64,000 nucleotides of DNA, from NCBI RefSeq assembly GCF_000710345.2, contig NZ_JHEL01000015.1, positions 930,001 to 994,000 on the forward strand. The letters are read 5' to 3'. The translations under genes were made by a program, and so were the position numbers. The notes beneath the pieces are model-generated. The model did no database searches, was not told where the DNA came from, and worked only from the letters and a program-made list of their open reading frames with translations. Source of the DNA: Curtobacterium sp. S6 (GTDB lineage: Bacteria > Actinomycetota > Actinomycetes > Actinomycetales > Micrococcaceae). Position 1 is the first letter of the stretch, and each line of letters begins with the position of its first letter. Positions 23,689-50,488 of this stretch are shown piece by piece.

Positions 23689-24864
23689 CTAGCTCGCGGC
23701 GGCGAGCTGCCCGCAGGCCCCGTCGATGTCCGATCCTCGGGTATCGCGCACGGTCGTCGGGATGCCGTGCGCGCGCAAGCGCTCCACGAAGTTCTGCTCG
23801 ACACCGGGTCGCGAGGCGGTCCACTTGGATCCGGGGGTCGGGTTCAGCGGGATCGGGTTCACGTGAACCCAGCCTCGTCCGCGCTGGGCCAGCTTCTTGC
23901 CCAAGAGATCCGCGCGCCAGCCCTGATCGTTGATATCGCGGATGAGCGCGTATTCGATCGAGACCCGGCGTCCGGTCTGGCGGTAGTAGTCGTAGGCCGA
24001 GTCGAGCGCCTCATCGACCTTCCACCGGTTGTTGATCGGGATCAACTCGTCGCGCAGCTCATCGTCCGGGGCGTGCAGGGACAGCGCCAAGGTCACCGGC
24101 AGGTTCTCCTGCGTGAACTTGTACATGCCGGGAACCAGGCCGACCGTGGACATCGTGATGCCACGAGCGGAGATTCCCAGGCCCTCGGGCGACGGATCGA
24201 TGAGACGGTGTACGGCCCCGAGCGAGGACTTATAGTTGGCCAACGCCTCTCCCATGCCCATGAAGACAATATTGGAGATACGCAGGGGCTTGGTCTCTTC
24301 GGGGCCGTTCTCGGCGCCTTCGAGGCCCTCCATCTCCTTGACCATCCGGGCGCCGGCCACGACCTGCTCGACGATCTCGGCCGTCGAGAGGTTGCGGGTC
24401 AGCCCGGCCTGGCCGGTCGCGCAGAACGGGCAGTTCATCCCGCAACCCGCCTGCGAGGAGATGCACATGGTCACGCGATTCGAATACCGCATGATCACGG
24501 ACTCCACGAGGGCCCCGTCGAAGAGGCGGTGAACCAACTTCAGGGTGTCTCCCCCGTCGGCCTCCAGCGTATTGACGGTCGTCAGCAGCGTGGGCATCGC
24601 ATCGGAGACCATCTGCTCGCGCGTCGCGGCGGGCAGGTCCGTCATATCCGCCGGGTCGGTCACGAGCCGTTCGAAGTAGTGCTTGGACAGCTGGGAGGCG
24701 CGGAAGGGCTCGTAGCCAAGTTCCTTGAGGAACTCCTTACGACCCTTGAGATCGAAGTCCGCGATGTGGCGGGGAGGCTTGCCGCGGCGGGGCGCCTGGA
24801 GCAGAATTTTGCCCGGCTCGGGGCGGGTGGTGATTTCGACGGGCGTCGACGTCTCAGATGACAT
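23689..24864 (-). CDS. rlmN: Dual-specificity 23S rRNA/tRNA adenine-C2 methyltransferase RlmN
   Basis: A 391-residue radical SAM enzyme. The iron-sulfur motif CGMNCPFC (CxxxCxxC), [23 protein letters not shown] and the late cysteine in [11 protein letters not shown], which forms the protein-RNA intermediate, are all present. It methylates 23S A2503 and tRNA A37. Its position between map and infA inside the ribosomal region is unusual: in other actinobacteria it normally sits near frr and dxr. It follows map by 38 bases on the same strand. Confidence 0.95.
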
Positions 24865-32019: not shown

Positions 32020-32565
32020 TGGTTACTCCTGTCGTCTCACCGGTTCTCACGCCGAGGCAGGCTTTGCCTGCTCGATCGCCGTGGGCCTTGTGGAACAGCT
32101 GGTCGGGGTTGATGACGCACCGTTTCCCCTGCTGACCGACGTCGAGCAGAATATTCTGCCCTCGTAGGAAAGGGTCAGCGGTACGCCTGGGAATTCTTCA
32201 TGCCAGGAACATCGTGAACCGCTGGCTCACCGACCGAACGTGGCTGGTGCCCGCGTCATTATGCACTGGCACGGAAAAATTCCGTGGAACATGTGTGGCA
32301 CCGCGCCACACCGCCGAAGGCATACGCCGCCGAAGTGAGGGCACGGAAAGTCCACACAAGGTCAATACTCTACCAGTTCCTCTCGACGAGTTAAAGGGGC
32401 GGTCGCCGCGGCGACCGTGATGATTCTCGTCACGAAGAACGCCCCAGAAGGGATAAACGAGGGGGTGCGCCCGGCCTTGACCGGGCACACCCCCTCTAGC
32501 TTCCACGCGAGAGGCCCTGGTTGTGGCTATCGGCCGCCCGCCGGGCCGGGCCTCCCCGCGTCAGG
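32020..32565. other. Gene-free stretch: spc operon leader and surface-protein terminator
   Basis: No coding region is supported here. On the minus strand it should carry the spc promoter: a CATAAT hexamer is visible in the 32260s and a TTGACC further upstream, but not at normal spacing from each other. Two compact stems lie in the leader: 32270-32286 (CACGGAA/TTCCGTG, three-base loop) and 32293-32311 (GTGTGGC/GCCACAC, five-base loop). A perfect 18-bp palindrome CGGTCGCCGCGGCGACCG is at 32400-32417, and the terminator of the surface-protein gene is at 32460-32495. Confidence 0.6.
32460..32495 (-). terminator. Terminator after the LAxTG surface-protein gene
   Basis: Fifteen paired positions (32460-32474 with 32481-32495, AGGGGGTG core, one G-U wobble) around a six-base loop lie 70 bases past the stop at 32566. 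UCGUUUA follows in the minus direction. Confidence 0.88.
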
Positions 32566-34911
32566 TTAGGCCGTCCGACGGCGGCGCAGCACGACCAAGG
32601 TCGCACCCGCCGCGAGCGCAATTGCGCCGGCGCCGATCATCCAGCCGATGCCACCGGCACCCGTGTAGGCCAGCTGACCCGACGGGGAGTCGGACTTGGC
32701 GCGGGTGGAGTTGACGGCCGGAGCCTGAGCCTGGGGCTGAGCCGAGGAATTTCCGTTCGAGGCGACACCCGGGCCACCCTGACCGCCGTCCATCCGCGGA
32801 GCGTCAGCCGCGGGGGCGCTCTCGGCGGAGTCCTTCCGGTCCCCCGCGGGGGCGGAGATCTTCTGCTCGTCCGACGTGGGGGTCGCCTCGTTCTTCACCT
32901 CCGGAGCGGCAGTGGAGTCCTTCTCGGGCTTCGCGTCGTTCTTTGCGTCGGCCTTTTCCTCCGGCTTGGCCTTCTCATCAGGCTTCACCTCAGGCTTGGC
33001 CTTGTCATCGGGCCGAGGCTCCGACTTCATCTCCAGCCCCTTCGTGGAGTCCACGTAGGTTCCGTACCCCTGGAAGGCAACCTCCATCGGCCGCACGGCC
33101 TGGGCCTCCGGGGCGGTCACCTCGGTCTTGCCGCCCGCCGCGATGGTGACCTCGACGTTGACCCCGCGGGATTTATCTCCATCCTTCGACGAACCCGAGA
33201 GGAAGGAGATCGTGTGCTTGGTGCCTGGATCCCAGGTTCCCGCCGCCGCGTTGGAGTTCTCCGCGGTGGGGAAGGGCAGGGTCGCCTCCCACTTTCCGTT
33301 CGCGTCCGCCTGGATCGTGGCGATCTCGGTCGATCCATTGACCGACACCCGGTTCTTGTCGTATTTGGCGACCACCGTGGAGCCGGCCGATCCATCCTCG
33401 ACCTTCCAACCCTCACCGGTGAACTTGATGCCCTGACCCTGCGGCAGAACGGTCGCCCCTGTCACGGTCGCGTTGGCGTCCTGCCGGGTGGCGATCGTCT
33501 TGACCTCGGTGGCCTCAACCTGGGCGGTCTCCGTGTGCCCCGGAACCATACCGTTCTCCGTGACCTCTACCTTGGTGATAGTGTCGGCCTTGATCGGGGT
33601 AGCGTCCTTGAGTTTCCACACCGGGTCTTCGCCCTTGGCCGCCGTATTGGTCACCCCGGAAATTTCGGTCGCCGAGGGGCGGTTTTGCCCGGTGGTGTAA
33701 TCGATGGTGAACGGAACCTCTCCCGCAAGGTAGGCCTCGCTCTTGTCGAGGGTAATCGCTCCGTAAGGCGTCGCGACGACGTCGTTCACTCCGAAGGCCG
33801 TCCCCATGGGGTTCTGCGACACGACCGCGGCGATATTCTGGGTCTTCCCGTCGAGGACGTAGAGACCGCGGTCCCGGCTGTTCTTGGCGCGATCGAAGTT
33901 CGTCACGTAGACGAGGTCGTGCTCCTCATCGTTATCCACGGCCAACGTCGTGCCGCCGAGCTCGATCCACTTCTTCAAGGCACCCGTCGACAGGTCGTAG
34001 ATCCCCACCCCGGAGTTCTTGCCGTCCTTGCCCTGAGAGGTCACGTACATCTCGTTCAGCGAGTGGTCTACGGCGATATCCGAGGGCATGAACGTCGCCG
34101 AGCTATCCTCGCCGCCCTCCAGGGTCAACGTTTGCGGAGCCTCGTCCAGGTTGTTGAGGTTGACGACCTTGACCTGACGGGTGATCCGCAGCGGGAAGTA
34201 GGCCTTTCCGTCCTTCTCATCGAAGTAGCTGTTCATGACGGCGAACTGCCGGTCTTGGACATCGGCGAGCTTCAAGGTCTTGAGGTGCTTGTACGTACCG
34301 GCGTCGAAGACGATCACCTGCCCCCTCACGCCCACGAACGCCATGCCCCGGGCGACGTGCACCTCGCGGGGGTGGATCATCCCGAGGGCTTCTCGCTCCC
34401 CCTGGGGCAGATCCCGCGTCGTGAAGACCTTCTTCATGGTGGTCTGGTCGTAGACGGTGATCGAGTCGTCCAGGGTGTTCGTCACCCAGACGGTGTTATG
34501 CGCGTCATCGACGCCCACCCCGTAGGGAGTCGCCAGGCGATGACCCGTCGGCGTCGTACCACCGCGCGGAATCGAGTCCACGACGTCCATCGACACGGTG
34601 TTCTCAATCTTCATGGTCTTCGGGTTGACCTTGGCCAAGGTGCCGGTCACGGCTCCCCACGCCGAGGAGGTAACCCATAGCGCATCGTTCTTCGCCGAGT
34701 ATCCGGCCTGGTACTGGCCCGGCAGACCCTGAGTCTGCTGGGCCTGCACCTGGAAGGAGCGGTACTGCGTGGGAGTCTGTCCAGCAGCGGGTGCCTGAGC
34801 CGCCAGCGCCGACGGGGCGAAGGTGCCGCCAACGAGTAGTGCCATGGAGCTCGAGGCAAGGGCCATCCGGCGGAAAGCCGTCGAAGAGGGTTTATTGCAG
34901 GAGAAAATCAT
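32566..34911 (-). CDS. LAxTG-anchored surface protein: beta-propeller plus beta-sandwich module
   Basis: A 781-residue secreted protein. The signal peptide ends near ALAAQA (about residue 38). Residues about 70-400 form repeated blades with WVTN and YVTN signatures (VWVTNTLDDSITVYD, LVYVTNFDRAKNS), as in YncE-type beta-propellers. A beta-sandwich module (about 485-591; FTGEGW, GSTVVAKYDKN, KHTISFLSGS) follows, then a lysine/proline/glutamate-rich wall-spanning region (600-740). It ends with the sortase signal LAYTG (747-751), a hydrophobic helix and RRRR. LAxTG is typical of class E sortase substrates. It is downstream of an iron-chelate importer with its own promoter region. The ligand is unknown; heme or siderophore capture is inferred. 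Confidence 0.85.
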   Translation of the reverse strand: MIFSCNKPSSTAFRRMALASSSMALLVGGTFAPSALAAQAPAAGQTPTQYRSFQVQAQQTQGLPGQYQAGYSAKNDALWVTSSAWGAVTGTLAKVNPKTMKIENTVSMDVVDSIPRGGTTPTGHRLATPYGVGVDDAHNTVWVTNTLDDSITVYDQTTMKKVFTTRDLPQGEREALGMIHPREVHVARGMAFVGVRGQVIVFDAGTYKHLKTLKLADVQDRQFAVMNSYFDEKDGKAYFPLRITRQVKVVNLNNLDEAPQTLTLEGGEDSSATFMPSDIAVDHSLNEMYVTSQGKDGKNSGVGIYDLSTGALKKWIELGGTTLAVDNDEEHDLVYVTNFDRAKNSRDRGLYVLDGKTQNIAAVVSQNPMGTAFGVNDVVATPYGAITLDKSEAYLAGEVPFTIDYTTGQNRPSATEISGVTNTAAKGEDPVWKLKDATPIKADTITKVEVTENGMVPGHTETAQVEATEVKTIATRQDANATVTGATVLPQGQGIKFTGEGWKVEDGSAGSTVVAKYDKNRVSVNGSTEIATIQADANGKWEATLPFPTAENSNAAAGTWDPGTKHTISFLSGSSKDGDKSRGVNVEVTIAAGGKTEVTAPEAQAVRPMEVAFQGYGTYVDSTKGLEMKSEPRPDDKAKPEVKPDEKAKPEEKADAKNDAKPEKDSTAAPEVKNEATPTSDEQKISAPAGDRKDSAESAPAADAPRMDGGQGGPGVASNGNSSAQPQAQAPAVNSTRAKSDSPSGQLAYTGAGGIGWMIGAGAIALAAGATLVVLRRRRTA

Positions 34912-35027
34912 GTTTCCTCGTTCTCTAGTATGCGGTGAATTGCGTCTCGGGCCGTGACGGAGCCACTGCGCCGTCGGCTCTATTCATCACCAGCGACGAG
35001 AAAAGCAACGGCACCTTCCACGCGCGT

Positions 35028-35046
35028 ATAAGTTTACCTAACCCCG
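35028..35046. promoter_or_regulatory. DtxR/IdeR-like half site at the surface-protein promoter
   Basis: ATAAGTTTACCTAACCCCG shares 12 of 19 positions with TTAGGTTAGCCTAACCTAA by hand count, including an intact CCTAACC half. It lies in the AT-rich patch expected to hold the promoter. An iron repressor here would fit the neighbouring importer, but one half site is degenerate. Confidence 0.3.
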
Positions 35047-35157
35047 TATTAAAGCAACCCTTATTTTCTGACCGAGACGCTTCCTCAGGCGCCCCCGCAC
35101 GGGCACGAATTCGTTCGCGCACGTCAGGCCCATGACCCGGGAGGTCGAGCCCCCAGA

Positions 35158-35171
35158 GTGATCTTGATCAC
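35158..35171. promoter_or_regulatory. CRP/GlxR-type palindrome
   Basis: GTGATCTTGATCAC is a 14-base palindrome with 6-base arms fitting the GTGA-N6-TCAC core of CRP-family operators (GlxR in corynebacteria). It lies about 250 bases upstream of the surface-protein start and about 55 bases after the ATPase stop. Confidence 0.4.
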
Positions 35172-35226
35172 CACACTGCGGTCACCCTCCGATCGGACGG
35201 CTCCCCCACTACCTGATCGCGACCCC

Positions 35227-36075
35227 TCATGTGTCGGCGGGAGTGGCCTCCGGCCGACCGCGTTTCGTGTCGAGCGGCACCACCAAGGGGCCGCCCGTCG
35301 CGGGATCCTCGATCACCACGTTCGGCAGGTCGAAAACCCGCTCCACCAGGGAAGAGGTCACCAACTGAGCCGGCCTCCCCTGCGCGATGACGATCCCCTC
35401 CTTCATCATCACCAGGTGGGTCGCATAGCGCAGGGCAAGGTTGAGGTCGTGCAACACCACGACCACGGTCCGCCCCTCCTCGTGGAGGCGGCGAGTGACG
35501 TCCAAGACCTCGATTTGATGCGTGATGTCGAGGTACGTGGTCGGCTCGTCCAGAAGGATCACCGGGGTGCTTTGGGCCAGGGTCATGGCGATCCACGCGC
35601 GCTGCCGTTGCCCACCGGACAGGGATTCCACCGGCCGGTCGCGCAGGTCCCAGACGTTCGTCGCGGCCATAGCGCGCCGACAGGCTTCCTCGTCCCGCGA
35701 GGTCCACGAGTTCACCAGGGATTGGTGCGGATATCGCCCGCGGGCGACGACGTCGGCGACGGTCACCCCGAGAGGGGCCTCCGGGGTTTGGGGTAGCATC
35801 GCAAGCTCGCGAGCGAGCGCCCTGCTACGAATGCCCTTGAGCGGCCTGCCGTCGAGCGTCACGAACCCCTCATGCGGCTCGACGACCCGCGCGAGCGCTT
35901 TCAGAAGCGTCGACTTGCCGCACGCATTGGGGCCGAGGATCACGGTCAGCTCCCCGTCGAGGACGGCGAGGTCCAGCGAACGCAGCACGGTCCGGGAACC
36001 GTAGCCGCAACTGATGTGGTGGGCCGCGAGGCGATGATCGGCCGCCCCGGTGGGAACGCTCACGGGGTGATTCAC
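35227..36075 (-). CDS. Iron-chelate ABC transporter ATP-binding protein (FepC type)
   Basis: A 282-residue ABC ATPase from GTG 36073-36075, overlapping the permease stop (GTGA) and preceded by GGAG. Walker A is GPNACGKST (48-56), the form typical of siderophore/heme importers. Next come a Q-loop MLPQTP, signature LSGGQRQRAWIAMTLAQ, Walker B ILLDEPTTYLD and H-loop VVVLHDLN. The frame is open much further upstream, but that part only shadows the permease. It powers the two permeases encoded just upstream. It is the last gene of the six-gene operon; the surface-protein gene follows after 315 bases. Confidence 0.93.
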   Translation of the reverse strand: MNHPVSVPTGAADHRLAAHHISCGYGSRTVLRSLDLAVLDGELTVILGPNACGKSTLLKALARVVEPHEGFVTLDGRPLKGIRSRALARELAMLPQTPEAPLGVTVADVVARGRYPHQSLVNSWTSRDEEACRRAMAATNVWDLRDRPVESLSGGQRQRAWIAMTLAQSTPVILLDEPTTYLDITHQIEVLDVTRRLHEEGRTVVVVLHDLNLALRYATHLVMMKEGIVIAQGRPAQLVTSSLVERVFDLPNVVIEDPATGGPLVVPLDTKRGRPEATPADT

Positions 36076-37142
36076 AATTTTCTCCGTTCCACCAAGATCA
36101 CGTAGACCAGATACAGTCCTCCGACCGCGCCGGTGATCACCCCCGCGGGCAGGTGCAGACCAAAGGCGTGGGCACCGAAGAGATCCGCGGCGAGCACCAG
36201 GGCGGCCCCCGTCAGCGCCGAGGTGGCAAGCCCCGCCCCGGAAGTCCTCGTCAACGCCCTGGCCAGATGAGGGGCCGCCATCGCGACGAAGGCCAGCGGC
36301 CCGGAGGTTGCGGTCGCGACGCTGACCAGCATGATGCCGACGATCAGCATGACCGCGCGCCATCCCGGCGGGACGCCGAGGCCGACCGCGGTCGCGTCTC
36401 CGAAACGCAGGGTCCCCAATGGGCGAGCGCCGGCGACGATCACCGGGCCTAGAACCGCCACGCCGATCACCACGACCAGGGTCTTCGACCAGGTCATCGT
36501 GTTGAACGAACCGACCAGCCACATCTGGGCGGCCTGGGCCAGGGCGGATTCCGCGCGAGAGACCAGGAGCGTGTTGACGGCCCCGAGGGTCGCCCCGATC
36601 CCTACCCCGACGATCACGAGCCGGTGCCCTCGGACGCCGTTGCTGCGGGTGGCGAGATAGATGACTCCGGCGGTGACGATCCCGCCGAGGACGGCTCCCA
36701 GCGCAATCCCGGAAGGATCCGCCTGAACCAGAATGATCATCACCACCGCACCCGTGGCCGCGCCCCGGCTGACGCCGATAATGTCGGGGCTGCCCAGCGA
36801 ATTTCCCGTGATGATTTGGAAGATCGCGCCGGAGACCCCGAATGCCGCGCCCACGGCGGTGGCCGCAATCGCCCGCGGCAAGCGGACCTGGTTCACAAAA
36901 TAGATATCCAGCCGGTTTCCCTGGCCCCACAGGGCGGCCCAGACCTCGCCGCCGCGGAGATCGCGCTCCCCCAAGGCGAGGGACCACGCGACCAGCCCGA
37001 GGATGCCCGACAGCAGGATCACCTGAATCACCACCGCCCTGACCGATACCCGGGCGTTGACGACCCCCCGCAGGGTGAGGGAGGGCCTGGTCCCCAGATC
37101 GGGCCCGCAGGATAGCGCGGTCTTTCCCACCGACCCCCTCAT
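36072..37142 (-). CDS. FecCD-family iron-chelate permease (second subunit)
   Basis: A 356-residue membrane protein with about ten helices. RLPRAIAATAVGAAFGVSGAIFQ, NSLGSPDIIGVSRGAATGA, SGPLAFVAMAAPHLAR and ADLFGAHAFGLHLPAGVITGAVGG are FecCD/BtuC motifs. Start ATG 37140-37142 overlaps the preceding permease stop (ATGA); upstream in-frame sequence is non-homologous. It pairs with the preceding gene as a heterodimeric channel (FepD/FepG or FhuB-like arrangement). Confidence 0.93.
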   Translation of the reverse strand: MRGSVGKTALSCGPDLGTRPSLTLRGVVNARVSVRAVVIQVILLSGILGLVAWSLALGERDLRGGEVWAALWGQGNRLDIYFVNQVRLPRAIAATAVGAAFGVSGAIFQIITGNSLGSPDIIGVSRGAATGAVVMIILVQADPSGIALGAVLGGIVTAGVIYLATRSNGVRGHRLVIVGVGIGATLGAVNTLLVSRAESALAQAAQMWLVGSFNTMTWSKTLVVVIGVAVLGPVIVAGARPLGTLRFGDATAVGLGVPPGWRAVMLIVGIMLVSVATATSGPLAFVAMAAPHLARALTRTSGAGLATSALTGAALVLAADLFGAHAFGLHLPAGVITGAVGGLYLVYVILVERRKL

Positions 37143-38125
37143 AGCGCGAGGACCCGCCGTCGCATCATCAGCGCCACGAAGAGTGGAGCCCCCAGCAGGG
37201 TGGCCAGGACCCCCACCGGCGCTTCCTGGGGCGCGAGGATCACGCGGGCCACGACGTCCGCCCCGAGAACCCACGCCGGACCGAGGATGATCGACCCCAC
37301 GTTGACCCACCGGACGTCGTTGCCGAGAACCGACCGGACGACGTACGGAACCGCCAGGCCCACGAACGCGATCGGCCCGATCGCGGCGGTCGTGGTTGCC
37401 GAGAGCAGGGCCACCGCCACGAGGGCCACGGTCCGGGTCCGTTGAACCGAGACCCCCAGGGAGATGGCCACCTCATCGCCCAGCGCCAACGCATGAAGGG
37501 ACCTGGTCACCGACAGCGCCAGAAGTACCCCCACGAGCTGGACGGGCACGACGTGCGCCACGACCGACAGCCCGCGCCCTTCCAACGAGCCGGCGATCCA
37601 TACCCGGAATTCATCAAAGGCATCGTGATTCGCCAGAATCATGGCCTCGGTCAGGGACATGAGCGCCGCGGAAAGGCCGATTCCCGCCAGGATGAGTCGC
37701 ACGACGTTCCGTTGGGCACCGCCTCCCAGGGAAAAGGCCAGCGCCGCGGTCACGCTCGCCCCCACCCAGGCGGCCAGCATGTAAGCCGGAAGGGAGGCCG
37801 AGCCCGTCACCACCACCAGGAGCACCACGGCGGCCGCCGCACCCGCGTTGAGCCCGAGGATCCCGGGTTCCGCGAGCGGATTGCGCGTCAACGTTTGCAT
37901 CAGGGACCCTGCCAGGCCCAGGGCCATCCCGCAGGCTACCCCCAGGATGGTCCGCGGTATGCGCTGTTCCCACAGGATGGTCCGTGCCAGAGAGCTGGCC
38001 GACCCCGAGAGGGCCCGCGTCACCTCGCCGACGGGCAAGGCATGTGATCCCCAGTAGAGCGAGGCCAGCACGGTGACAAGGCTCAGGGCTCCCATGCCCA
38101 GGAGCCACATCGGCCTGCGGTACAC
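37139..38125 (-). CDS. FecCD-family iron-chelate permease (first subunit)
   Basis: A 328-residue membrane protein starting GTG at 38123-38125, directly abutting the stop of the upstream surface-protein gene. It has RIPRTILGVACGMALGLAGSL, NPLAEPGILGLNAGAAAAV, GPIAFVGLAVPYVVRSVLG and APQEAPVGVLATLLGAPLF, typical of FecCD permeases. Helix count is about nine or ten. It forms the importer with the following permease and ATPase. Confidence 0.93.
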   Translation of the reverse strand: MYRRPMWLLGMGALSLVTVLASLYWGSHALPVGEVTRALSGSASSLARTILWEQRIPRTILGVACGMALGLAGSLMQTLTRNPLAEPGILGLNAGAAAAVVLLVVVTGSASLPAYMLAAWVGASVTAALAFSLGGGAQRNVVRLILAGIGLSAALMSLTEAMILANHDAFDEFRVWIAGSLEGRGLSVVAHVVPVQLVGVLLALSVTRSLHALALGDEVAISLGVSVQRTRTVALVAVALLSATTTAAIGPIAFVGLAVPYVVRSVLGNDVRWVNVGSIILGPAWVLGADVVARVILAPQEAPVGVLATLLGAPLFVALMMRRRVLAL

Positions 38126-39142
38126 TCACTCCCCTCCATCGACCGGAGCCGACGGGTCCGCCGTGGATGGGGACCGACGGCGCATCCACATGGCCGCCGC
38201 GACCGCAACGGCCAGGACCAGGACGATCGTCCCGGCCCACGGGAAGGCCCCGGCCTCGCGGTCCCGGTGCTCGGTGGAGGCGGCCTGCGCCGTGGGCGCC
38301 GAGACCTCGGCTGCGGTCGATTTCTCCGCCCCGCGTGTTCCCGACGGGCTCGCGGCCGTCGCCGAGGCCGACGGGCTCACGGTGACCGAAGACGATCCGG
38401 AGCCTTCGGCTTGACGCCGCGCATATTCCTCCGCCGAGATGGGCCGGCCGGCCTCGTCGAGATACTCGACGGCCTGGTCCTGGCCCCGCGAATCGCCCTG
38501 CGCTCCGTCCCGCCCGGAAGCCCCCTGCGCGTCGGCCGGGGACCCGTTGCCCGAGGACTCCCCGAGACGTCCCGAACCTTCTCGATCCGTGCGATTCGCG
38601 GGGGTGCCCGCCCCGGAGGAACCGCCCGCCCCGGCGGCGATGTCCTTGGCATCCACGGAATATACCCGCCCGCCGACCGACGACTCGTTGACCCCCTGGA
38701 CCGTGAATCCGGGGCTCTCGTTGGTATACCCCTTGGTGCCCTTCCCATCGGGCAGCAGTGCCGTGGCCAGGAAACGCAACGTGTGCGTTCCCTCGGAGAG
38801 ATCCCGCGGAAGCACCAGGGAGCCTTCGACGCGACCGGTGCCGTCGGACTTCTGCTGATGAACGACGCACGCCCCCTGCGGCGAGTCCGCCGGGCAGGCC
38901 TGACCGTTATCAATCTTGATATATACCTGCTCATTGCGGGGAAAACCGGTGAGATCAAACCCGATGGTGTCCCCCGCTTTGAGGACCTGGGGGGCTACGG
39001 TCGAGCTCGTCCCCGGGGTGTTGACCCCGGCGCCCGTCGGGGGAAGCGCCTCGCCGGCGGGGGCTCCCCACACCCCCAACCACAGGGCCGAGACGAGTGC
39101 ACCGAGCGAGAGACCCCCGAGTCGACGTTGAACGACGGACAT
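38126..39142 (-). CDS. Membrane-anchored surface protein with one beta-sandwich module
   Basis: A 338-residue secreted protein. The signal peptide lies at about 1-32 (LSLGALVSALWLGVWGAPAG) and a module at about 50-150 (GFDLTGF, VYIKIDNG, SLVLPRDLSEGTHTLRFLA, PGFTVQG). Cys83 and Cys92 could form a disulfide within it. A serine/glycine/alanine-rich stalk runs from about 155 to 297, and one helix (about 301-318) is followed by RRR with no sortase motif. The module resembles those in the neighbouring 646- and 781-residue proteins. It lies between the other surface protein and the permeases with no gap, so a role in ligand hand-over is likely but unproven. Confidence 0.75.
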   Translation of the reverse strand: MSVVQRRLGGLSLGALVSALWLGVWGAPAGEALPPTGAGVNTPGTSSTVAPQVLKAGDTIGFDLTGFPRNEQVYIKIDNGQACPADSPQGACVVHQQKSDGTGRVEGSLVLPRDLSEGTHTLRFLATALLPDGKGTKGYTNESPGFTVQGVNESSVGGRVYSVDAKDIAAGAGGSSGAGTPANRTDREGSGRLGESSGNGSPADAQGASGRDGAQGDSRGQDQAVEYLDEAGRPISAEEYARRQAEGSGSSSVTVSPSASATAASPSGTRGAEKSTAAEVSAPTAQAASTEHRDREAGAFPWAGTIVLVLAVAVAAAMWMRRRSPSTADPSAPVDGGE

Positions 39143-39145
39143 GAC

Positions 39146-41086
39146 CTATTCCCTTTCTTCCGTGGTCTGCATCGGTGACGCCGGCCGGCGGCGCGTCGTG
39201 GCCACGGTCGCCACGAGCACGACGACGCCCGCCAGCGCCAGGAGAACGTTGTCGGCCGAGAAGATCCGGGCCCCGGAACGCGAGGAGACGGCATCGGCCG
39301 GCCGAGGGCGCGCTACGTTAGGCCCCTCGACGAGCGTTGAACCGGGGGTGTGGGGAACCTCCGTGACGTGCGGACGCGGCGACGCGACATCTTCCACAGC
39401 AGCCTGCTGCGCGACCGGCCTCGGCCTCAGGCGAAACACCTGGCGCGCGGGGCGTGCCGATCCCGCGAAGCGTTCCAACGCGCTCTCGACGCGCGGACCG
39501 CGCCCACCGGCATCCGCGTGGTGCGCCGGCATCGCCTCCGGCCGATCCCGCGCTCCCCCGGAGGCACGCTCCGCGTCGTCGTGGAGGCCAGGCGAGGGCA
39601 CGGACGCATGATCGTGGGCCTCCACGGCCGAGGCCGTTGCTCGCGCCGGATCTGGGGCCCCGGCTTCTCCACCGCCCGCGGGTGCGCGCGAGGTCTCCTC
39701 GACGTCGAGCCAGTCCCAGCCGGCGACCTCGCCGAGAAGGCCCAGGTCTCCTCGCTGAACCACGAGCCGGTATTTTCCGCCCGCCATCGCGGAGGGGAGG
39801 TCGTAGGCAAAGGTCCCGTCCTCCGACAGCCGCATCCATCCGCTGCCCCACTGCGGCCGAGCGGAACCGGCGATGTAGGGCGTCGCGATGACCCACTCAC
39901 CGCCCGATGCATCATTCAGACGCACGGTCACCCGGCGCTCGGATCGAGACACGCTGATGTGACGACCGGGCTCAGGGCCGAGATCGGCCAATCCCACGGT
40001 GTCGGGCAACCCGTTGGGCCGATAGTCACCCACGGTGAAGTTCAGCGTGGCGGGGCCTCCGTAACTGGTATGCAAGTCCCCTTCGCGGAGAGACCCCGAG
40101 AGCAGCCGGAGAGAGTGCAGCCCAGGGCCCAGCGCGGGAGAGGAAGCGGCGTCGGACCCATCCGGTAGATCGATCCACACGTCCAGGCGCCCGGTCTTCG
40201 CGTCGGGATCCACGATCGCCCACACGGTTCTGTTCGAAAAGACGGCGTCGTCGGTCCGGGCGATCTTCCCCTCGTCGATTTTGATGGCGACGCGGGGAGC
40301 CCCGCCGCTCTCGACGGGATTGCACCAACCGTCGCCCACCAGGTGCAGCTTGCCGCCGGGGGCAACGGAGCGGTTTTCAATGGTCGCGACGGGCTTCTCC
40401 ACATCCGAACGGCACGTCCCGGCGGACTCGTGCGCGAGTTCGGGAGCCGCGAGGCCGTCCACCGGGATCGGGCGGGACACGCCGCGCCGCTGCACGTCGT
40501 GCCTCATGATGTGCCCCGACTGCGCCGTGACCGTGACGTAATGCCCCGGCCGCGCGTGCGCCAGCTCCTCGGGGGCCTTGACCGTGATGTCGAAGGAACC
40601 ATCCCGGCGAACCGAGAAGATCCCGTGGTCCGGATCCTCCGGGCCGGCGCCTTCGGGCCGCACCAAGGCCCAGATCGTGGGGTCCTCGGCCTGTCCGAGG
40701 GATGACAGATAGGCGCCGATGGCGCCGTCCGGGCGCCGGAGCTGACGAGGCTTTCCGTTCCCGTCGAGATCGTTGATTTTCAGGGCAAGGGTCGATCCGG
40801 AATCTCCGGCCGCGGACAACCACCCGGTTCCGGTGATCCTCAGCGTGGCTGCCTCCCCGGTGGTAATGGGCTCCACGCGGAACTCGGCCGGCGGCCTGCC
40901 GCCGTCAGAGGGAATCGTGGTGGCGACCCAATCGGAGGTATCGACGGCGGATGCCTGCGGGGTCTGCGGGATATCGGCCGACCACGCGGGTAACGGTGTG
41001 GCCACACCGACGAGAATTGTGGTCAATCCGGCGCACCACACGGATAGCTCACGGACATTCGGTCGGGAAGGAGTTCGTTGTTTCAT
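39146..41086 (-). CDS. Membrane-anchored surface protein with three beta-sandwich modules and a His-rich stalk
   Basis: A 646-residue secreted protein: signal peptide to about ADIPQ (residue 37), modules at about 70-210 (ITGTGWL, GSTLALKIND), 235-355 (LVGDGWC, RVAIKIDEGK, GLHSLRLLSGSL) and a divergent one at 375-460. Cys225 and Cys255 may pair. A stalk (465-610) contains a histidine-rich part (EAHDHASVP, PAHHADAG) that might bind metal or heme. A final helix (about 614-632) ends in TTRRR without a sortase signal. It follows the binding-protein gene by 55 bases and precedes the 338-residue gene by three. I know no named family for it. Confidence 0.75.
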   Translation of the reverse strand: MKQRTPSRPNVRELSVWCAGLTTILVGVATPLPAWSADIPQTPQASAVDTSDWVATTIPSDGGRPPAEFRVEPITTGEAATLRITGTGWLSAAGDSGSTLALKINDLDGNGKPRQLRRPDGAIGAYLSSLGQAEDPTIWALVRPEGAGPEDPDHGIFSVRRDGSFDITVKAPEELAHARPGHYVTVTAQSGHIMRHDVQRRGVSRPIPVDGLAAPELAHESAGTCRSDVEKPVATIENRSVAPGGKLHLVGDGWCNPVESGGAPRVAIKIDEGKIARTDDAVFSNRTVWAIVDPDAKTGRLDVWIDLPDGSDAASSPALGPGLHSLRLLSGSLREGDLHTSYGGPATLNFTVGDYRPNGLPDTVGLADLGPEPGRHISVSRSERRVTVRLNDASGGEWVIATPYIAGSARPQWGSGWMRLSEDGTFAYDLPSAMAGGKYRLVVQRGDLGLLGEVAGWDWLDVEETSRAPAGGGEAGAPDPARATASAVEAHDHASVPSPGLHDDAERASGGARDRPEAMPAHHADAGGRGPRVESALERFAGSARPARQVFRLRPRPVAQQAAVEDVASPRPHVTEVPHTPGSTLVEGPNVARPRPADAVSSRSGARIFSADNVLLALAGVVVLVATVATTRRRPASPMQTTEERE

Positions 41087-41141
41087 GTCAGGTACTTCGT
41101 GATGTTCGGGTCGAGGGCCCGGAAGGCGGGCCCCGTGAGGC

Positions 41142-42188
41142 CTAGGAAGCCAAGAGGGCCTTGGCGACGTCGTCGACGATGCCGTCCATCAGGAGCGGCC
41201 CGCCGGTCGAGGTCCACAGGGAGCCGTCGACCAGAACGATGTTGCCGGAGCGATAGGCTCGCAGGTCTTTGAAGCCCGAGACCCCTTCCGCCGTCTCCAA
41301 GGCTTTGCGGGCCGAGTCCAGGCCGGGGTCGTCCTCCGAGTGAGGATTCGCTTGGCTCGCGCCGCCCAAGGTCCCGAAGAACATGTAGTCGGCATCGATC
41401 GTTGACAGGCTTTCCAATGACACGGGTTCGGAGTGCCCGCGGCCTTCACGGTTCTGCGGTTCCGGCCGGCGCAGCCCTAGGGCGTCCAGGGCTTCTCCCG
41501 CCGGAAGCTCCTTGAGGATCAGTGACGGGCCGCTCCCCTGCCAGCGGACGATCGAAAAGGTCTTCTCGGAGTATTTGCCCTCCAAGGCCTGGCGCTTGTC
41601 GGAGACCTTCTCCTCAAATCGTCGCTTGAATTCGACCCCCTGGTCCGCCAGGTTCAGGGCATCGGCAACATGGTCAAAGTTCAGCTCCCACCGGCCTCCC
41701 GCGTATCCCGTGAAGACCAGCGGAGCAATCTTCTTGAGGATGTCCAGGATGTCCGGCCGGTTGTTGACGCTCGTCCCGTCCACCACGATGAGATCGGGGT
41801 CCAGCGACGAGATCTTTTCGTAGTCGAGGTTGCCAATGGTTCCGACCAACGGGATACCCTCGGCCAGATCCCCCAGGTAGTGCGGGGCCCGGGCCTGACC
41901 GCGGCCCGCGACGGTGCCGACGGGCTTGACGCCCAGCGCCAACGCGGCGTCGAGGGTCGGTTCCGACAGGGTCACCACGCGCTGCGGGTGCTCCGGAACC
42001 GTCACCTCGGCGTCGTCGATGTCCTTGACGACCCTGGTTAGCCCCTGGCTACCGGCGTCTTCGGTGGTCGCCGCGACACCGCAGGCCGTCAGCGCCAAGA
42101 GAAGCACGAGACCCGCGACCAGCGCCTTTCCGACCCGGCGCTGAGCGCTCCCCACGCGATACATAACAAGGCTTAGCACACCGTGCAT
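41142..42188 (-). CDS. Iron-chelate ABC transporter substrate-binding lipoprotein (FecB/PeripBP type)
   Basis: A 348-residue lipoprotein with lipobox LTAC (33-36), so it should be tethered by Cys36. It has PQRVVTLSEPTLDAALALGVKPVGT, ISSLDPDLIVVDG, and a C-terminal GGPLLMDGIVDDVAKALL, typical of class III siderophore/heme binding proteins. Start ATG 42186-42188 has a G-rich Shine-Dalgarno at good spacing; ATG 42164 is an alternative that better fits the signal length. It is the first gene of the operon feeding two permeases and an ATPase. Chelate specificity cannot be read from sequence. Confidence 0.9.
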   Translation of the reverse strand: MHGVLSLVMYRVGSAQRRVGKALVAGLVLLLALTACGVAATTEDAGSQGLTRVVKDIDDAEVTVPEHPQRVVTLSEPTLDAALALGVKPVGTVAGRGQARAPHYLGDLAEGIPLVGTIGNLDYEKISSLDPDLIVVDGTSVNNRPDILDILKKIAPLVFTGYAGGRWELNFDHVADALNLADQGVEFKRRFEEKVSDKRQALEGKYSEKTFSIVRWQGSGPSLILKELPAGEALDALGLRRPEPQNREGRGHSEPVSLESLSTIDADYMFFGTLGGASQANPHSEDDPGLDSARKALETAEGVSGFKDLRAYRSGNIVLVDGSLWTSTGGPLLMDGIVDDVAKALLAS

Positions 42189-42252: not shown

Positions 42253-42331
42253 CGTGTCCGGGGCCGCACCGAGCGCGCTTCCCGGCCCCGGCGGGCGAAT
42301 TCGGACACGCGGCACGGCGCAATGCACGCAA

Positions 42332-42367
42332 AAAGGCCCCCTCCCGATCTCTCGGGAGGGGGCCTTT
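42332..42367 (-). terminator. Strong terminator after rpsQ (end of S10 operon)
   Basis: A 16-bp perfect stem (42332-42347 with 42352-42367, AAAGGCCCCCTCCCGA) with a four-base loop TCTC is followed by a U-run on the minus strand. It starts 29 bases past the rpsQ stop, so the S10 transcript ends here and not in the spc operon. Confidence 0.93.
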
Positions 42368-42396
42368 CCTTGGGCTATCGAGCCGGGAGAGCCAAT

Positions 42397-42669
42397 TTAC
42401 TTGGCCTTCTCCAGGATCTCGACGATGCGCCAACGCTTGGAGGCCGACAGCGGCCGGGTCTCCATGATGCGCACGAAGTCGCCGACGCCAGCAGTATTCT
42501 GCTCGTCGTGCGCCTTCACCTTGCTGCTGCGGCGCAGGACCTTGCCGTAGAGGCCGTGCTTGACGTGGTCCTCCACCTCGACGACGACGGTCTTGTCCAT
42601 TTTGTCGGACACGACGAAGCCGCGACGGGTCTTGCGGAGATTACGCTCTTCCGTCTTCTGTTCACTCAC
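42397..42669 (-). CDS. rpsQ: 30S ribosomal protein S17
   Basis: A 90-residue OB-fold protein with [39 protein letters not shown] and [17 protein letters not shown]. It binds 16S rRNA early in assembly. Its ATG overlaps the rpmC stop (ATGA). It is the last gene of the S10 operon; the usual next gene, rplN, is displaced by the 10-kb accessory block. Confidence 0.98.
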
Positions 42670-48199: not shown

Positions 48200-48829
48200 C
48201 TAGATCCAACCACCAAATCCGGGAACGTATCCCATCTTGTCGTCGCGGGAGGCGGTCGCGCCGCCCTCCCCCGCGGTCTCGACGGTCACCAGGACGTTGA
48301 ACGTGACGTTGCGGAAGGGTGGGTTCACGAAGTATCGCAGAGGCACATTGATCGCCTGGCCCGGCGAAATGGTGCCGCGATAGGTCACCCCGAAACGCGC
48401 CCCTTCCCTGGAACCGATCCGCGTGCGTTCCTCCTGGACACTCACCTGGGCCATCGGCGAGGTCACCTTGAACTGGTTGGCGCCCACCGGGGCATAGTCC
48501 GATCCATAGTCTCGCATGGTCACGGTCATGCGGCCGGACGGGTCCGTCACGGGTGCCGTTCCTTCGTTCCTCAGCACGACCGAAGGTGGCAGGGAAGCAA
48601 GGGTCCGGACGTTGTTGCCCGTCGCGAATCGGTAGACCGGAACCGTCCGTTCCGGGTCGAAGGTGCCAAAATTCACGGGCGGATCCGACAGCAGCATCCG
48701 GAGGCCCGCCCCGGTCGAACTTGCGGCATGGGCCGGGACGAGGCTCGTCGCGGCGATCGCCGGGGCGCTCCACATGATGGCTCCGACGAATCGCCGACGC
48801 GGCGTGGCAAGGGTATCTGAATCAGTCAT
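48200..48829 (-). CDS. Secreted protein of unknown function linked to cholesterol oxidase
   Basis: A 209-residue protein. PRRRFVGAIMWSAPAIAATSLVPAHAAS at the start, with an arginine cluster and AxA cleavage site, looks like a Tat-type or Sec signal peptide (about residues 1-36). The mature part is predicted mostly beta strand, with two stretches resembling an Ig-like sandwich (VVLRNEGTAPVTDPSG, VPLRYFVNPPFRNVTFNVLV). It has no cysteine or recognised catalytic motif. It starts 12 bases after the cholesterol oxidase stop, so the two are one operon. I do not recognise the family. Confidence 0.75.
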   Translation of the reverse strand: MTDSDTLATPRRRFVGAIMWSAPAIAATSLVPAHAASSTGAGLRMLLSDPPVNFGTFDPERTVPVYRFATGNNVRTLASLPPSVVLRNEGTAPVTDPSGRMTVTMRDYGSDYAPVGANQFKVTSPMAQVSVQEERTRIGSREGARFGVTYRGTISPGQAINVPLRYFVNPPFRNVTFNVLVTVETAGEGGATASRDDKMGYVPGFGGWI

Positions 48830-48841
48830 TGACGAATGCTC

Positions 48842-50488
48842 CTAGAATCGACGGCCCGCGAGGAGCCTGTCCATATTTCTCTCGGCGAGGGCCGTGATGG
48901 TCACGAACGGGTTGACGCCGATCTTTCCGGGGATCAGCGAGCCGTCCATCACGAACAGGCCCGGAACGCCCTTGACCTCGCCCGAGAGGTCCGTCACCTC
49001 GCCGAGAACGGCACCACCGAGCGGATGATAGGAGAAGTAGTCCGCAAATTCCTGGTGCCTCTCGAAGACGTCGGACCGATAGCTGGTGTTCCTGCTGGCC
49101 CGGTTGATGCGGTCGAAGAATGCTCGTGCGGCGTCGACCCCCGGCTTGGCCTTGCCCCTATCCCAGTTCAAGCGCAGGGTGTTGGTCTGGGCGTCCCAGC
49201 TGAATTCTCCGTGGTTCGGATTATTCGTGATGGCCAGGTAGACCCCGGTATACAGCTCGATGCCAGTGGGGAACGGCGCGATCTCGGCGAAGACCGACTG
49301 CGGGGAGTCGTCCCAGTTGGTCACGCCCATGACCGGGATCGTCGATTGATGCGCGCCGGTCGGCGTGCCCCAGAGGCGCCGCGCGACCATCACGTTCCCG
49401 TTGGGGCCCCACCCGCCGCCGAGGCCAGGCGGCAGATGTTTGATCGTCCCCTGGTGCTGGGCCTTCGCGAGGAGCCGCGCCGTGCCGATCGATCCGGCCG
49501 CGAGGACCACGCGGTCATAGGTCGCGGTGCGCTCCTCGAGGAGGCTTCCCCAGAAGTCGATCCTCCGCAGGCTGAGGTCAAAGGCACCGTCGGGCCGCTG
49601 AGTCAGCCGCGTCACCTCGGTCATCGGCATGAGGTTGACGCGCCCGGTCGCCAACGCCTCCCGAAGGATCGATTTGGGCAGGGAATTCTTGCCATAGTTG
49701 TTGCCGAACATCACCTCCGCCGCCAGGGCCGACCGAGGCACCTGCCCGAAGGTTTCCCGGCGCAGATAGTCGAAGTCGTACACGTTCGGAACCATGCGGT
49801 GCCCGTAGCCGGCCCGCTTGGCCTGCTGCGCGCTGACTCGCGCGAACTGGTACCACGGGGAATTCAGCACGATATCCGCGGGCGGGTCGGTCACGATCAG
49901 GTTCCGCCGCGCCCTCGGGAAGTACGTCGAGTACATTTCTTCGGCGTCGACCTGCGGAAGGACCTTCTCGAAGAAAGAGCGCACTGGCGTCACGGCCATG
50001 CCGCCGTTGACCAGGGACCCGCCGCCGACGCCGCGCCCCACGTACACCTTCATCTCGGCGAAGGTTTCGACGTCCAGCACGCCGGCGCCGGGCTTGATGG
50101 GGCGGTTCACGATATCCATGCCACCCAGGTAGCTGAACGGCATGTCGGTTCGGCGTTTAAACCACATCGAGCGTTCGTTGGGCGACCGCATGGAAGTGAA
50201 GACAGCGCCCTTGCCGGACGCCATGGCCTCCCAGTCCGCCCCCATTTCGATGAGATCGACCCGACGCCCCGCCTGGGCGAGGCTCCGGGCCGCCACGGCT
50301 CCCCCGTATCCAGAGCCGATGATGGCGATTCGGGGGCCGGTGCGCACCTCGGCCGGGGTGGCCAGTGCGGGCTCCGCCGCGGCCCCGAGCGCAACTCCGG
50401 CGCCGGCGGCCACGGTGGTGGTGACGAATGTTCGACGAGAAAGTGACGGAGACAATTCGACTGCTTTCCTCATGAATTGTTCGGCCAC
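48842..50488 (-). CDS. choA: Secreted GMC-family cholesterol oxidase
   Basis: A 548-residue flavoenzyme. A twin-arginine signal SRRTFVTTTVAAGAGVALG precedes cleavage near residue 43. FAD-binding GSGYGGAVAARSL is at 58-70 and YVGRGVGGGSLVNGG at about 149-163. The catalytic glutamate, histidine and asparagine of Streptomyces-type cholesterol oxidase align with Glu402 (VFAEIAP), His488 (SYHPLGG) and Asn526 (GVNPFVT). It oxidises cholesterol to cholest-4-en-3-one with hydrogen peroxide release. The usual cysteine after HPLGG is alanine here. Start GTG 50488 or ATG 50473 are both possible. It lies between tuf and rpsJ. Confidence 0.88.
   Translation of the reverse strand: MAEQFMRKAVELSPSLSRRTFVTTTVAAGAGVALGAAAEPALATPAEVRTGPRIAIIGSGYGGAVAARSLAQAGRRVDLIEMGADWEAMASGKGAVFTSMRSPNERSMWFKRRTDMPFSYLGGMDIVNRPIKPGAGVLDVETFAEMKVYVGRGVGGGSLVNGGMAVTPVRSFFEKVLPQVDAEEMYSTYFPRARRNLIVTDPPADIVLNSPWYQFARVSAQQAKRAGYGHRMVPNVYDFDYLRRETFGQVPRSALAAEVMFGNNYGKNSLPKSILREALATGRVNLMPMTEVTRLTQRPDGAFDLSLRRIDFWGSLLEERTATYDRVVLAAGSIGTARLLAKAQHQGTIKHLPPGLGGGWGPNGNVMVARRLWGTPTGAHQSTIPVMGVTNWDDSPQSVFAEIAPFPTGIELYTGVYLAITNNPNHGEFSWDAQTNTLRLNWDRGKAKPGVDAARAFFDRINRASRNTSYRSDVFERHQEFADYFSYHPLGGAVLGEVTDLSGEVKGVPGLFVMDGSLIPGKIGVNPFVTITALAERNMDRLLAGRRF

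What the first reader, a model, noticed from the sequence alone, without database searches (positions are those of the whole stretch)
32566..42188. Possible new cell-wall relay for heme or siderophore: three surface proteins sharing one module plus a FecB/CD/FepC importer
Sequence: the 646-, 338- and 781-residue proteins all carry a beta-sandwich module with the pattern TGxGW, GSxxxAxKID, LP..pGxHxLRFLSGS (TGF replaces TGxGW in the 338-residue protein). Two are membrane anchored with long stalks, one is wall anchored by LAYTG and has a propeller. The two stalk proteins are in the importer operon with zero to 55 bases between genes. Knowledge: Corynebacterium HtaA/HtaB-HmuTUV and Staphylococcus Isd use wall-to-membrane relays feeding this importer type. 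Inference: this is an analogous relay with an unrelated binding module; I see neither HtaA nor NEAT motifs.
Basis: partly seen in the sequence, partly recalled or inferred. Interest (0 to 1): 0.78.

Follow-up and report, generated by a model that had tools for sequence, protein, structure and literature searches.

The report
Enterobactin uptake locus with surface proteins
This stretch of a Rothia chromosome looks like the import half of an enterobactin-type iron-scavenging gene cluster, with three related cell-surface proteins, one of them a YncE-like propeller, that may help the iron carrier reach the importer; that role is still to be tested.

Summary
In detail: three surface proteins (646, 338, 781 aa) share one module, and two lie in a FecB/FecCD/FepC operon. 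Heme is not supported: the genome has a separate HtaA-HmuTUV locus. Siderophore is well supported by context.

In Rothia relatives the order lipoprotein-646-338-FecCD-FecCD-FepC is followed by Fes (enterochelin esterase) in 10 of 15 loci, with EntE in all ten. In one genome the set runs S17 | importer-Fes-EntE-ArCP-EntF-propeller | L14, so the window looks like this cluster without its Fes-EntF block. A genus of another order keeps the operon with Fes nearby and a divergent module-propeller gene. Three Streptomyces-like enterobactin clusters have a YncE-like propeller next to Fes or one gene away, one of them with a four-module membrane protein. Iron boxes precede several of these genes in relatives; in the window they are weak or missing.

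Best reading: a ferric-enterobactin-type importer with wall and membrane accessory proteins. The own ent cluster lies elsewhere, beside a HmuTUV-like importer.

The parts
41142..42188 (-). lipoprotein, siderophore substrate-binding protein (Peripla_BP_2)
   Evidence: Pfam PF01497 E=6e-18; nearest solved relative YfiY 3tny E=5e-30; groups with lipoproteins of Fes and ent loci
39146..41086 (-). 646-aa membrane-anchored surface protein: two modules (about 55-215, 222-354), domain D (about 362-468), stalk, C-terminal membrane segment
   Evidence: matches in 16 of 35 genomes of the genus
38126..39142 (-). 338-aa membrane-anchored surface protein: one module with a nearly invariant Cys pair (83, 92), stalk, C-terminal membrane segment
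37139..38125 (-). FecCD-type permease
   Evidence: PF01032 E=8e-82
36072..37310 (-). FecCD-type permease; the listed start is probably too early, with start codons at 37142 and 37130 more likely
   Evidence: PF01032 E=2e-66 over residues 104-406; start codons
35227..36075 (-). FepC/FecE-type ATPase, GTG start overlapping the permease stop
   Evidence: PF00005 E=1e-29; best NCBIfam profiles FecE and FepC, below their cut-offs; start read
32566..34911 (-). 781-aa protein: YncE-like beta-propeller (about 45-430), one module (about 478-603), stalk, LAYTG wall anchor
35028..35046 (-). weak DtxR/IdeR-like box (12 of 19) upstream of the 781-aa gene; chance level about 0.1
   Evidence: placed on the sequence
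42330..42369 (-). hairpin followed by a T-run after S17, between the ribosomal gene and the lipoprotein gene
   Evidence: -43.8 kcal/mol, z -4.5
32459..32496 (-). hairpin after the 781-aa gene, before L14, without a clear T-run
   Evidence: -46.8 kcal/mol, z -5.1

Best explanation
The locus is the uptake half of an enterobactin-type (catecholate tri-ester) siderophore cluster set between the S17 and L14 genes of a Rothia ribosomal protein cluster. Steps supported by homology and context: a lipoprotein, two FecCD permeases and a FepC-type ATPase import a ferric siderophore, and in relatives a Fes esterase encoded next in line frees the iron. Steps inferred: the wall-anchored propeller-module protein and the two membrane-anchored stalk-module proteins concentrate the ferric siderophore in the thick cell wall and hand it to the lipoprotein. 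In this genome the Fes-EntE-ArCP-EntF block that sits between FepC and the propeller gene in a relative is absent from this place; another ent cluster with its own Fes lies on another contig.
For: Six-gene order in 13 of 15 Rothia loci that had been picked by a 646-aa match; the other two are cut by contig ends. Fes follows FepC in 10 of 15; two further loci reached from Fes have it too, L108 with a 646-like module protein and L109 without one. Order S17|lipoprotein-646-338-FecCD-FecCD-FepC-Fes-EntE-ArCP-EntF-propeller|L14 in G028 (L024 and L115); propeller directly after EntF also in L031. Same six genes in a genus of another order, with Fes on the same strand beyond one opposite-strand gene, and a divergent module-propeller gene (L143, L146). 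YncE-like propeller next to Fes in two Streptomyces-like ent clusters and one gene away in a third, where that gene codes for a four-module membrane protein. Module and propeller fused in both orders: propeller-module in Rothia, module-propeller in L158/L159. Co-occurrence of the 646-aa protein with Fes in 35 Rothia genomes: 15 both, 1 only 646 (G016, 65% complete), 4 only Fes, 15 neither (Fisher 2e-5, not corrected for kinship). Lipoprotein tree. Iron boxes of 15-16 of 19 before the lipoprotein gene in 5 of 15 loci, 17 in the Streptomyces-like cluster. R. mucilaginosa makes enterobactin (PMC7190385, listing and passages).
Against: In the window itself no Fes or biosynthesis gene is adjacent, and the own ent cluster (C10) has a HmuTUV-like importer that could serve it instead. 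The own Fes is only 31% identical to the operon-linked type. The lipoprotein's closest solved relative, YfiY, was solved with ferric schizokinen, not a catecholate (PMC7337064 passages). No strong iron box in the window (10 of 19 before the lipoprotein gene, 12 before the propeller gene). The five strong Rothia boxes (L025-L028, L030) come from few lineages: three of these loci match named R. nasimurium contigs and one Ca. R. avicola, while L030 is unnamed. No ligand-binding residue could be assigned; generic Ig-like wall proteins resemble the module. Two Rothia genomes with Fes, G025 and G026, have no 646 match and no module near Fes. 38 of 43 Fes places outside Rothia have neither module nor strong propeller within the stretch scanned. 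Antarctic Rothia with enterobactin-like clusters made no detectable siderophore in the published tests (PMC13347742 passages).
Confidence: 0.6

Rival explanations
1. Siderophore importer as above, but the modules are passive Ig-like spacers or scaffold domains; the surface proteins position the lipoprotein or brace the wall and never touch the siderophore. Only the propeller or domain D, if anything, binds ligand.
For: Modules vary in number (two in the window's 646-aa protein, one more in relatives, four in the Streptomyces-like protein), as spacers do; Ig-like wall proteins of similar pattern occur in other genomes (L062, L065; their surroundings were not examined); positions shared by 60 aligned modules are mostly G, P and hydrophobic, apart from K (58), H (47) and D (44).
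Against: The 338-type module keeps a Cys pair, an H and two Q nearly invariant (90% or more of 18 rows) across two orders, more than a spacer seems to need.
Confidence: 0.3
2. Heme or hemoglobin relay analogous to HtaA-HmuTUV.
For: Same general architecture: membrane-anchored surface proteins plus SBP, FecCD permeases and ATPase; the ATPase also matches a heme ATPase profile below cut-off.
Against: No HtaA/NEAT match; HtaA-domain proteins with HmuTUV at another place of the same genome; operon next to Fes in relatives; lipoprotein apart from HmuT.
Confidence: 0.04
3. In this genome the system takes up xenosiderophores (enterobactin or its breakdown products from neighbours), while the own siderophore uses the HmuTUV-like importer of the C10 cluster. 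This does not exclude the best explanation.
For: The own ent cluster carries its own FecCD-type importer and a divergent Fes; the genus of another order (L143, L146) has importer and Fes with no ent biosynthesis gene in the 20 kb scanned.
Against: The ATPase of the C10 importer passes the cut-off of a heme ATPase family, which would leave the own siderophore without an importer.
Confidence: 0.3
4. The surface proteins are adhesins that happen to travel with the importer.
For: Wall anchoring, long stalks, Ig-like modules.
Against: Gene order inside the importer operon conserved across two orders near Fes; propeller kept near Fes in three large-genome ent clusters.
Confidence: 0.08

Closest known systems
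Enterobactin/bacillibactin importers: FepBDGC-Fes (E. coli), FeuABC-BesA (Bacillus) (names recalled; FeuA also in PMC13293324 passages)
   Same: SBP, two FecCD permeases and an ATPase, with an enterochelin esterase linked to ent genes in relatives
   Different: three extra surface proteins with a shared module; Gram-positive import is described as beginning with the SBP (PMC13293324 passage; that text has no 'cell wall', 'surface protein' or 'propeller')
HtaA/HtaB/ChtA-HmuTUV heme system of Corynebacterium (PMC12494546, passages)
   Same: membrane-anchored surface proteins sharing a repeated domain, plus a FecCD-type importer
   Different: module is not the HtaA (CR) domain; linked to Fes in relatives; this genome has an HtaA locus elsewhere
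Isd/NEAT relay of Staphylococcus (recalled; NEAT transfer mentioned in PMC12494546 passages)
   Same: wall-anchored protein and membrane-near partners
   Different: no NEAT domain found
E. coli YncE (PDB 3vgz)
   Same: propeller homologous in sequence; YncE is found in supernatants, overproduced in a fur mutant and of unknown physiological function, apart from reported single-stranded DNA binding (PMC5120174, PMC5476278, passages)
   Different: here wall-anchored and fused to a module, beside siderophore genes; far below the YncE family cut-off
Rothia enterobactin-like BGCs flanked by ribosomal protein genes (PMC13347742, passages)
   Same: same genus and ribosomal flanks as in several of our relatives
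   Different: its main text has none of the words FecCD, transporter, propeller, YncE or LPXTG; the window's site lacks the biosynthetic genes

Membership tests
FecCD-type ferric siderophore ABC importer | SBP, two FecCD permeases, FecE/FepC-type ATPase in one operon | tested here: met
   single transcript not tested
Enterobactin uptake system | adjacent enterochelin esterase (PF11806) | tested here: inconclusive
   met in 10 of 15 relatives plus L108, L109 and, beyond one opposite-strand gene, L143, L146; not adjacent in the window, own Fes on another contig
Enterobactin uptake system | binding and transport of ferric enterobactin | not testable with these tools
   needs bench work
HtaA heme family (PF04213) | HtaA domain in the surface proteins | tested here: not met
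   no match to E=1; module, D and propeller profiles do not match the long frames of the genome's own HtaA loci at E up to 10
NEAT/Isd | NEAT domain | tested here: not met
   no NEAT in the Pfam scan to E=1
YncE (NF052280) | score above the curated equivalog cut-off | tested here: not met
   47.7 bits against 400; Streptomyces-like propeller 103.9; homologous, not the equivalog
Sortase-anchored wall protein | LPXTG-like motif, membrane segment, basic tail | tested here: inconclusive
   LAYTG and tail present; TIGR01167 14.5 of 15.9 bits, NF058582 22.8 of 27
DtxR/IdeR regulon | 19-bp iron box upstream | tested here: inconclusive
   window 10 and 12 of 19, relatives up to 16, Streptomyces-like cluster 17; the consensus used is recalled

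The most novel reading that the evidence does not exclude
A wall-to-membrane ferric-enterobactin relay: a YncE-type beta-propeller is the outer receptor that captures ferric enterobactin (or opens its lactone), and module-bearing stalk proteins pass it through the wall to the lipoprotein. It would be a Gram-positive counterpart of the outer-membrane enterobactin receptor and would point to a function for the YncE family.
Probability: 0.28. Interest if true: 0.85.

Novelty: new variant of a known kind. Interest (0 to 1): 0.6.

Why it matters
Gram-positive siderophore import is described as beginning with the membrane lipoprotein (PMC13293324 passage), which leaves passage through the wall open. 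Surface proteins tied to enterobactin genes in three actinobacterial lineages make that question testable, and they offer a concrete lead for YncE-like propellers, which in E. coli are secreted and iron-regulated without a known physiological role. At least one oral Rothia makes enterobactin, so the system may bear on iron competition in the mouth.

Tried and rejected
Heme relay: rejected on (no HtaA/NEAT; separate HtaA locus with HmuTUV; lipoprotein tree). Anti-phage defence: no PADLOC match for the three surface proteins. Solved structures for the 338 and 646 families: none credible. Plasmid-borne relatives of the Streptomyces-like module protein: no match. Weaker propellers at L122, L149 and L131 (E 4e-18 to 1e-7) were not counted. 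Of the 10 genomes matched, eight were not credited: I read four of the loci (L062, L063, L065, L067), two of them generic Ig-like wall proteins; L061, L064, L066 and L068 were judged by score and place in the profile only. In the lipoprotein tree hits with under 180 aligned residues were dropped, among them the lipoprotein of G426, which lies across two fetched stretches. Lactone opening by the propeller: only a sub-threshold virginiamycin B lyase match of the Streptomyces-like propeller, kept as part of the novel case. The promoter and terminator scan gave no promoter-like site and no excess of terminator-like sites. Literature: searches listed no paper, judged by titles and starts of abstracts, that couples these surface proteins or a propeller to enterobactin uptake in actinobacteria; the library holds open-licence papers only, and of the papers opened I saw passages found by word search.
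Full report
WHAT IS THERE. The seven genes between 32566 and 42188 read on the minus strand and lie between the S17 (42397-42669) and L14 (31648-32019) genes of a ribosomal protein cluster (ribosomal genes named by eye). Order: lipoprotein, 646-aa protein, 338-aa protein, two FecCD permeases, FepC-type ATPase, a 315-bp gap, and the 781-aa protein. Gaps inside the first six are 55, 3 and 0 bp, then overlaps. Stable hairpins stand after S17 and after the 781-aa gene; the consensus scan of the region gave no promoter-like site and no more terminator-like sites than shuffles. The genus is Rothia by its relatives: a named-genome scan with the 338-aa family returned 11 loci, 10 titled Rothia and one 'Kocuria sp. 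36'. The window species itself is not named.

THE SHARED MODULE. Pfam finds nothing above cut-off in the three surface proteins and NCBIfam only a weak YncE match and near-threshold sortase signals in the 781-aa protein. Profile-profile comparison of module sets links them: 781 module with an N-terminal module that relatives of the 646-aa protein have and the window's lacks 99.9%, third 646 module with 781 module 98.7% and with the 338 module 95.1%, second with third 97.5%. The direct 338-781 comparison is weaker (74.3%) and second 646 module against 338 fails (0.6%). Domain D (about 362-468 of the 646-aa protein) stays apart (55.4% at best). Generic Ig-like wall proteins elsewhere look similar.

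RELATIVES. The 646-aa protein has matches in 16 of 99 genomes, all among the 35 of the same genus. Of 15 loci fetched around them, 13 hold all six genes in order and two are cut by contig ends. Fes follows in 10 of the 15, with EntE in 10 of those 10, a carrier protein in 9 and EntF in 8. L025-L028 and L030 also hold EntA, EntB, EntC and an Sfp-type protein. The five without Fes are L021-L023, which are the window's closest kin in the lipoprotein tree, and L028 and L030, which stop at contig ends. In G028 (L024 and L115) the whole cluster, propeller gene last, lies between S17 and L14. In the window and L021-L023 the propeller gene follows FepC. I infer loss of the Fes-EntF block from this place; gain in the others is not excluded. 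A published comparison also places some Rothia enterobactin-like clusters beside ribosomal protein genes, and reports no siderophore from Antarctic strains under its test conditions (PMC13347742, passages).

CO-OCCURRENCE. Fes is found in 19 of 35 Rothia genomes. Against the 646-aa protein: 15 both, 1 only 646 (G016, 65% complete), 4 only Fes, 15 neither; Fisher 2e-5, and 6e-7 if the two Fes-only genomes in which a profile found the 338-type protein (G010, G015) are moved. Kinship is not corrected. Of the other two, G025 has a HmuTUV-like importer near Fes and G026 a Fes-EntE-ArCP set between ribosomal genes without importer. They were not searched genome-wide for the 338-aa protein.

BEYOND THE GENUS. 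The 338-aa profile matched 10 of 396 genomes of the phylum at E up to 0.001, of which I credit two, the window's genome and G339. G339 belongs to a genus (g58) of 7-10 Mb genomes that I take for Streptomyces; no call names it. There a protein with four modules and a membrane segment starts 122 bp from the divergent Fes gene of an ent cluster and is followed by a secreted YncE-like propeller. Starting instead from Fes: 45 places in 39 of 394 genomes of the class. I fetched and scanned the 43 places outside Rothia, about 20 kb each with some cut by contig ends. Strong propeller matches (E below 1e-30) occur at 5 of 43 places, that is 5 of 37 genomes; modules at 3 of 43; the six-gene operon at 2 of 43, both from one genus. 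Of five genomes with EntA, B, C, E, F and Fes together (G339, G426, G615, G541, G202), three have the strong propeller, one a weak one, one none. In L143 and L146, from another order, the operon lipoprotein-646-338-FecCD-FecCD-FepC is followed by Fes on the same strand beyond one opposite-strand gene, which I read by eye as a GntR-type regulator; a divergent gene fuses the module in front of the propeller. Fusion in either order and adjacency as separate genes suggest that module and propeller work together.

SUBSTRATE. A tree of 37 lipoproteins, drawn mostly from Rothia operons and Fes loci, places the window's with L143/L146 (support 0.99), then with lipoproteins of other Fes or ent loci (1.0, 0.97), apart from HmuT. 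Against this, the nearest solved protein is YfiY, solved with ferric schizokinen (PMC7337064, passages). The own genome has EntA, EntB, a divergent Fes, a HmuTUV-like importer, EntE, ArCP and EntF on contig C10, and HtaA-domain proteins with HmuT, HmuU, HmuV and a gene that I read by eye as heme oxygenase on C12. So heme is unlikely, an enterobactin-type siderophore likely, own or foreign siderophore open.

REGULATION. With a recalled DtxR/IdeR consensus, boxes of 15-16 of 19 stand before the lipoprotein gene in 5 of 15 loci tested (14 relatives and the window); the start used for L025 was an estimate. The other ten score 10-12, which chance gives. Propeller genes have 12-14 in 6 of 6, with chance estimates 0.10 (window), 0.07, 0.01, 0.02, 0 of 400 and 0.005, so four of six stand out. 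The Streptomyces-like cluster has 17 between Fes and the module gene. Iron control of the window's own genes is therefore not shown.

MECHANISM. Shown by sequence: importer, anchors, module kinship, linkage. Inferred: ferric enterobactin is the ligand; the propeller-module protein in the wall and the two stalk proteins at the membrane raise its local concentration and hand it over. E. coli YncE is found in supernatants, is overproduced in a fur mutant and has no known physiological function (PMC5120174, PMC5476278, passages); an expression-based method put it with siderophore-iron transport (PMC2585105 passage). None of this shows binding.

VERDICT. The finding is real, and its context points to enterobactin rather than heme, but its most interesting step, capture and hand-off at the wall, is untested.

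Noticed in passing
48200-50488 (-): A 209-aa protein without Pfam match, Tat-signal-like by eye, and a GMC oxidoreductase (548 aa) sit between the S10 gene and tuf.
   Followed up: partly
23689-24864 (-): An RlmN-like gene (by eye) lies inside the ribosomal protein cluster near a methionine aminopeptidase-like gene.
   Followed up: no
L056 8038-19899: The own ent cluster carries a HmuTUV-like importer between Fes and EntE; L112-L114 hold the same kinds of genes, L110 some of them.
   Followed up: partly
L058 9650-13760: In G003 a second FecCD-type permease and a lipoprotein lie between S17 and the operon described here.
   Followed up: no
L036 6649-11660: G009 keeps a propeller-module gene and a second propeller-like frame after S17, while its importer and ent genes lie elsewhere in the genome.
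   Followed up: partly
L146 14638-17986: The 646-type gene appears as two overlapping frames, intact in its sister L143; left as is.
   Followed up: no
L111 9528-12906: G026 has Fes-EntE-ArCP between ribosomal genes, without importer or surface proteins found there.
   Followed up: no
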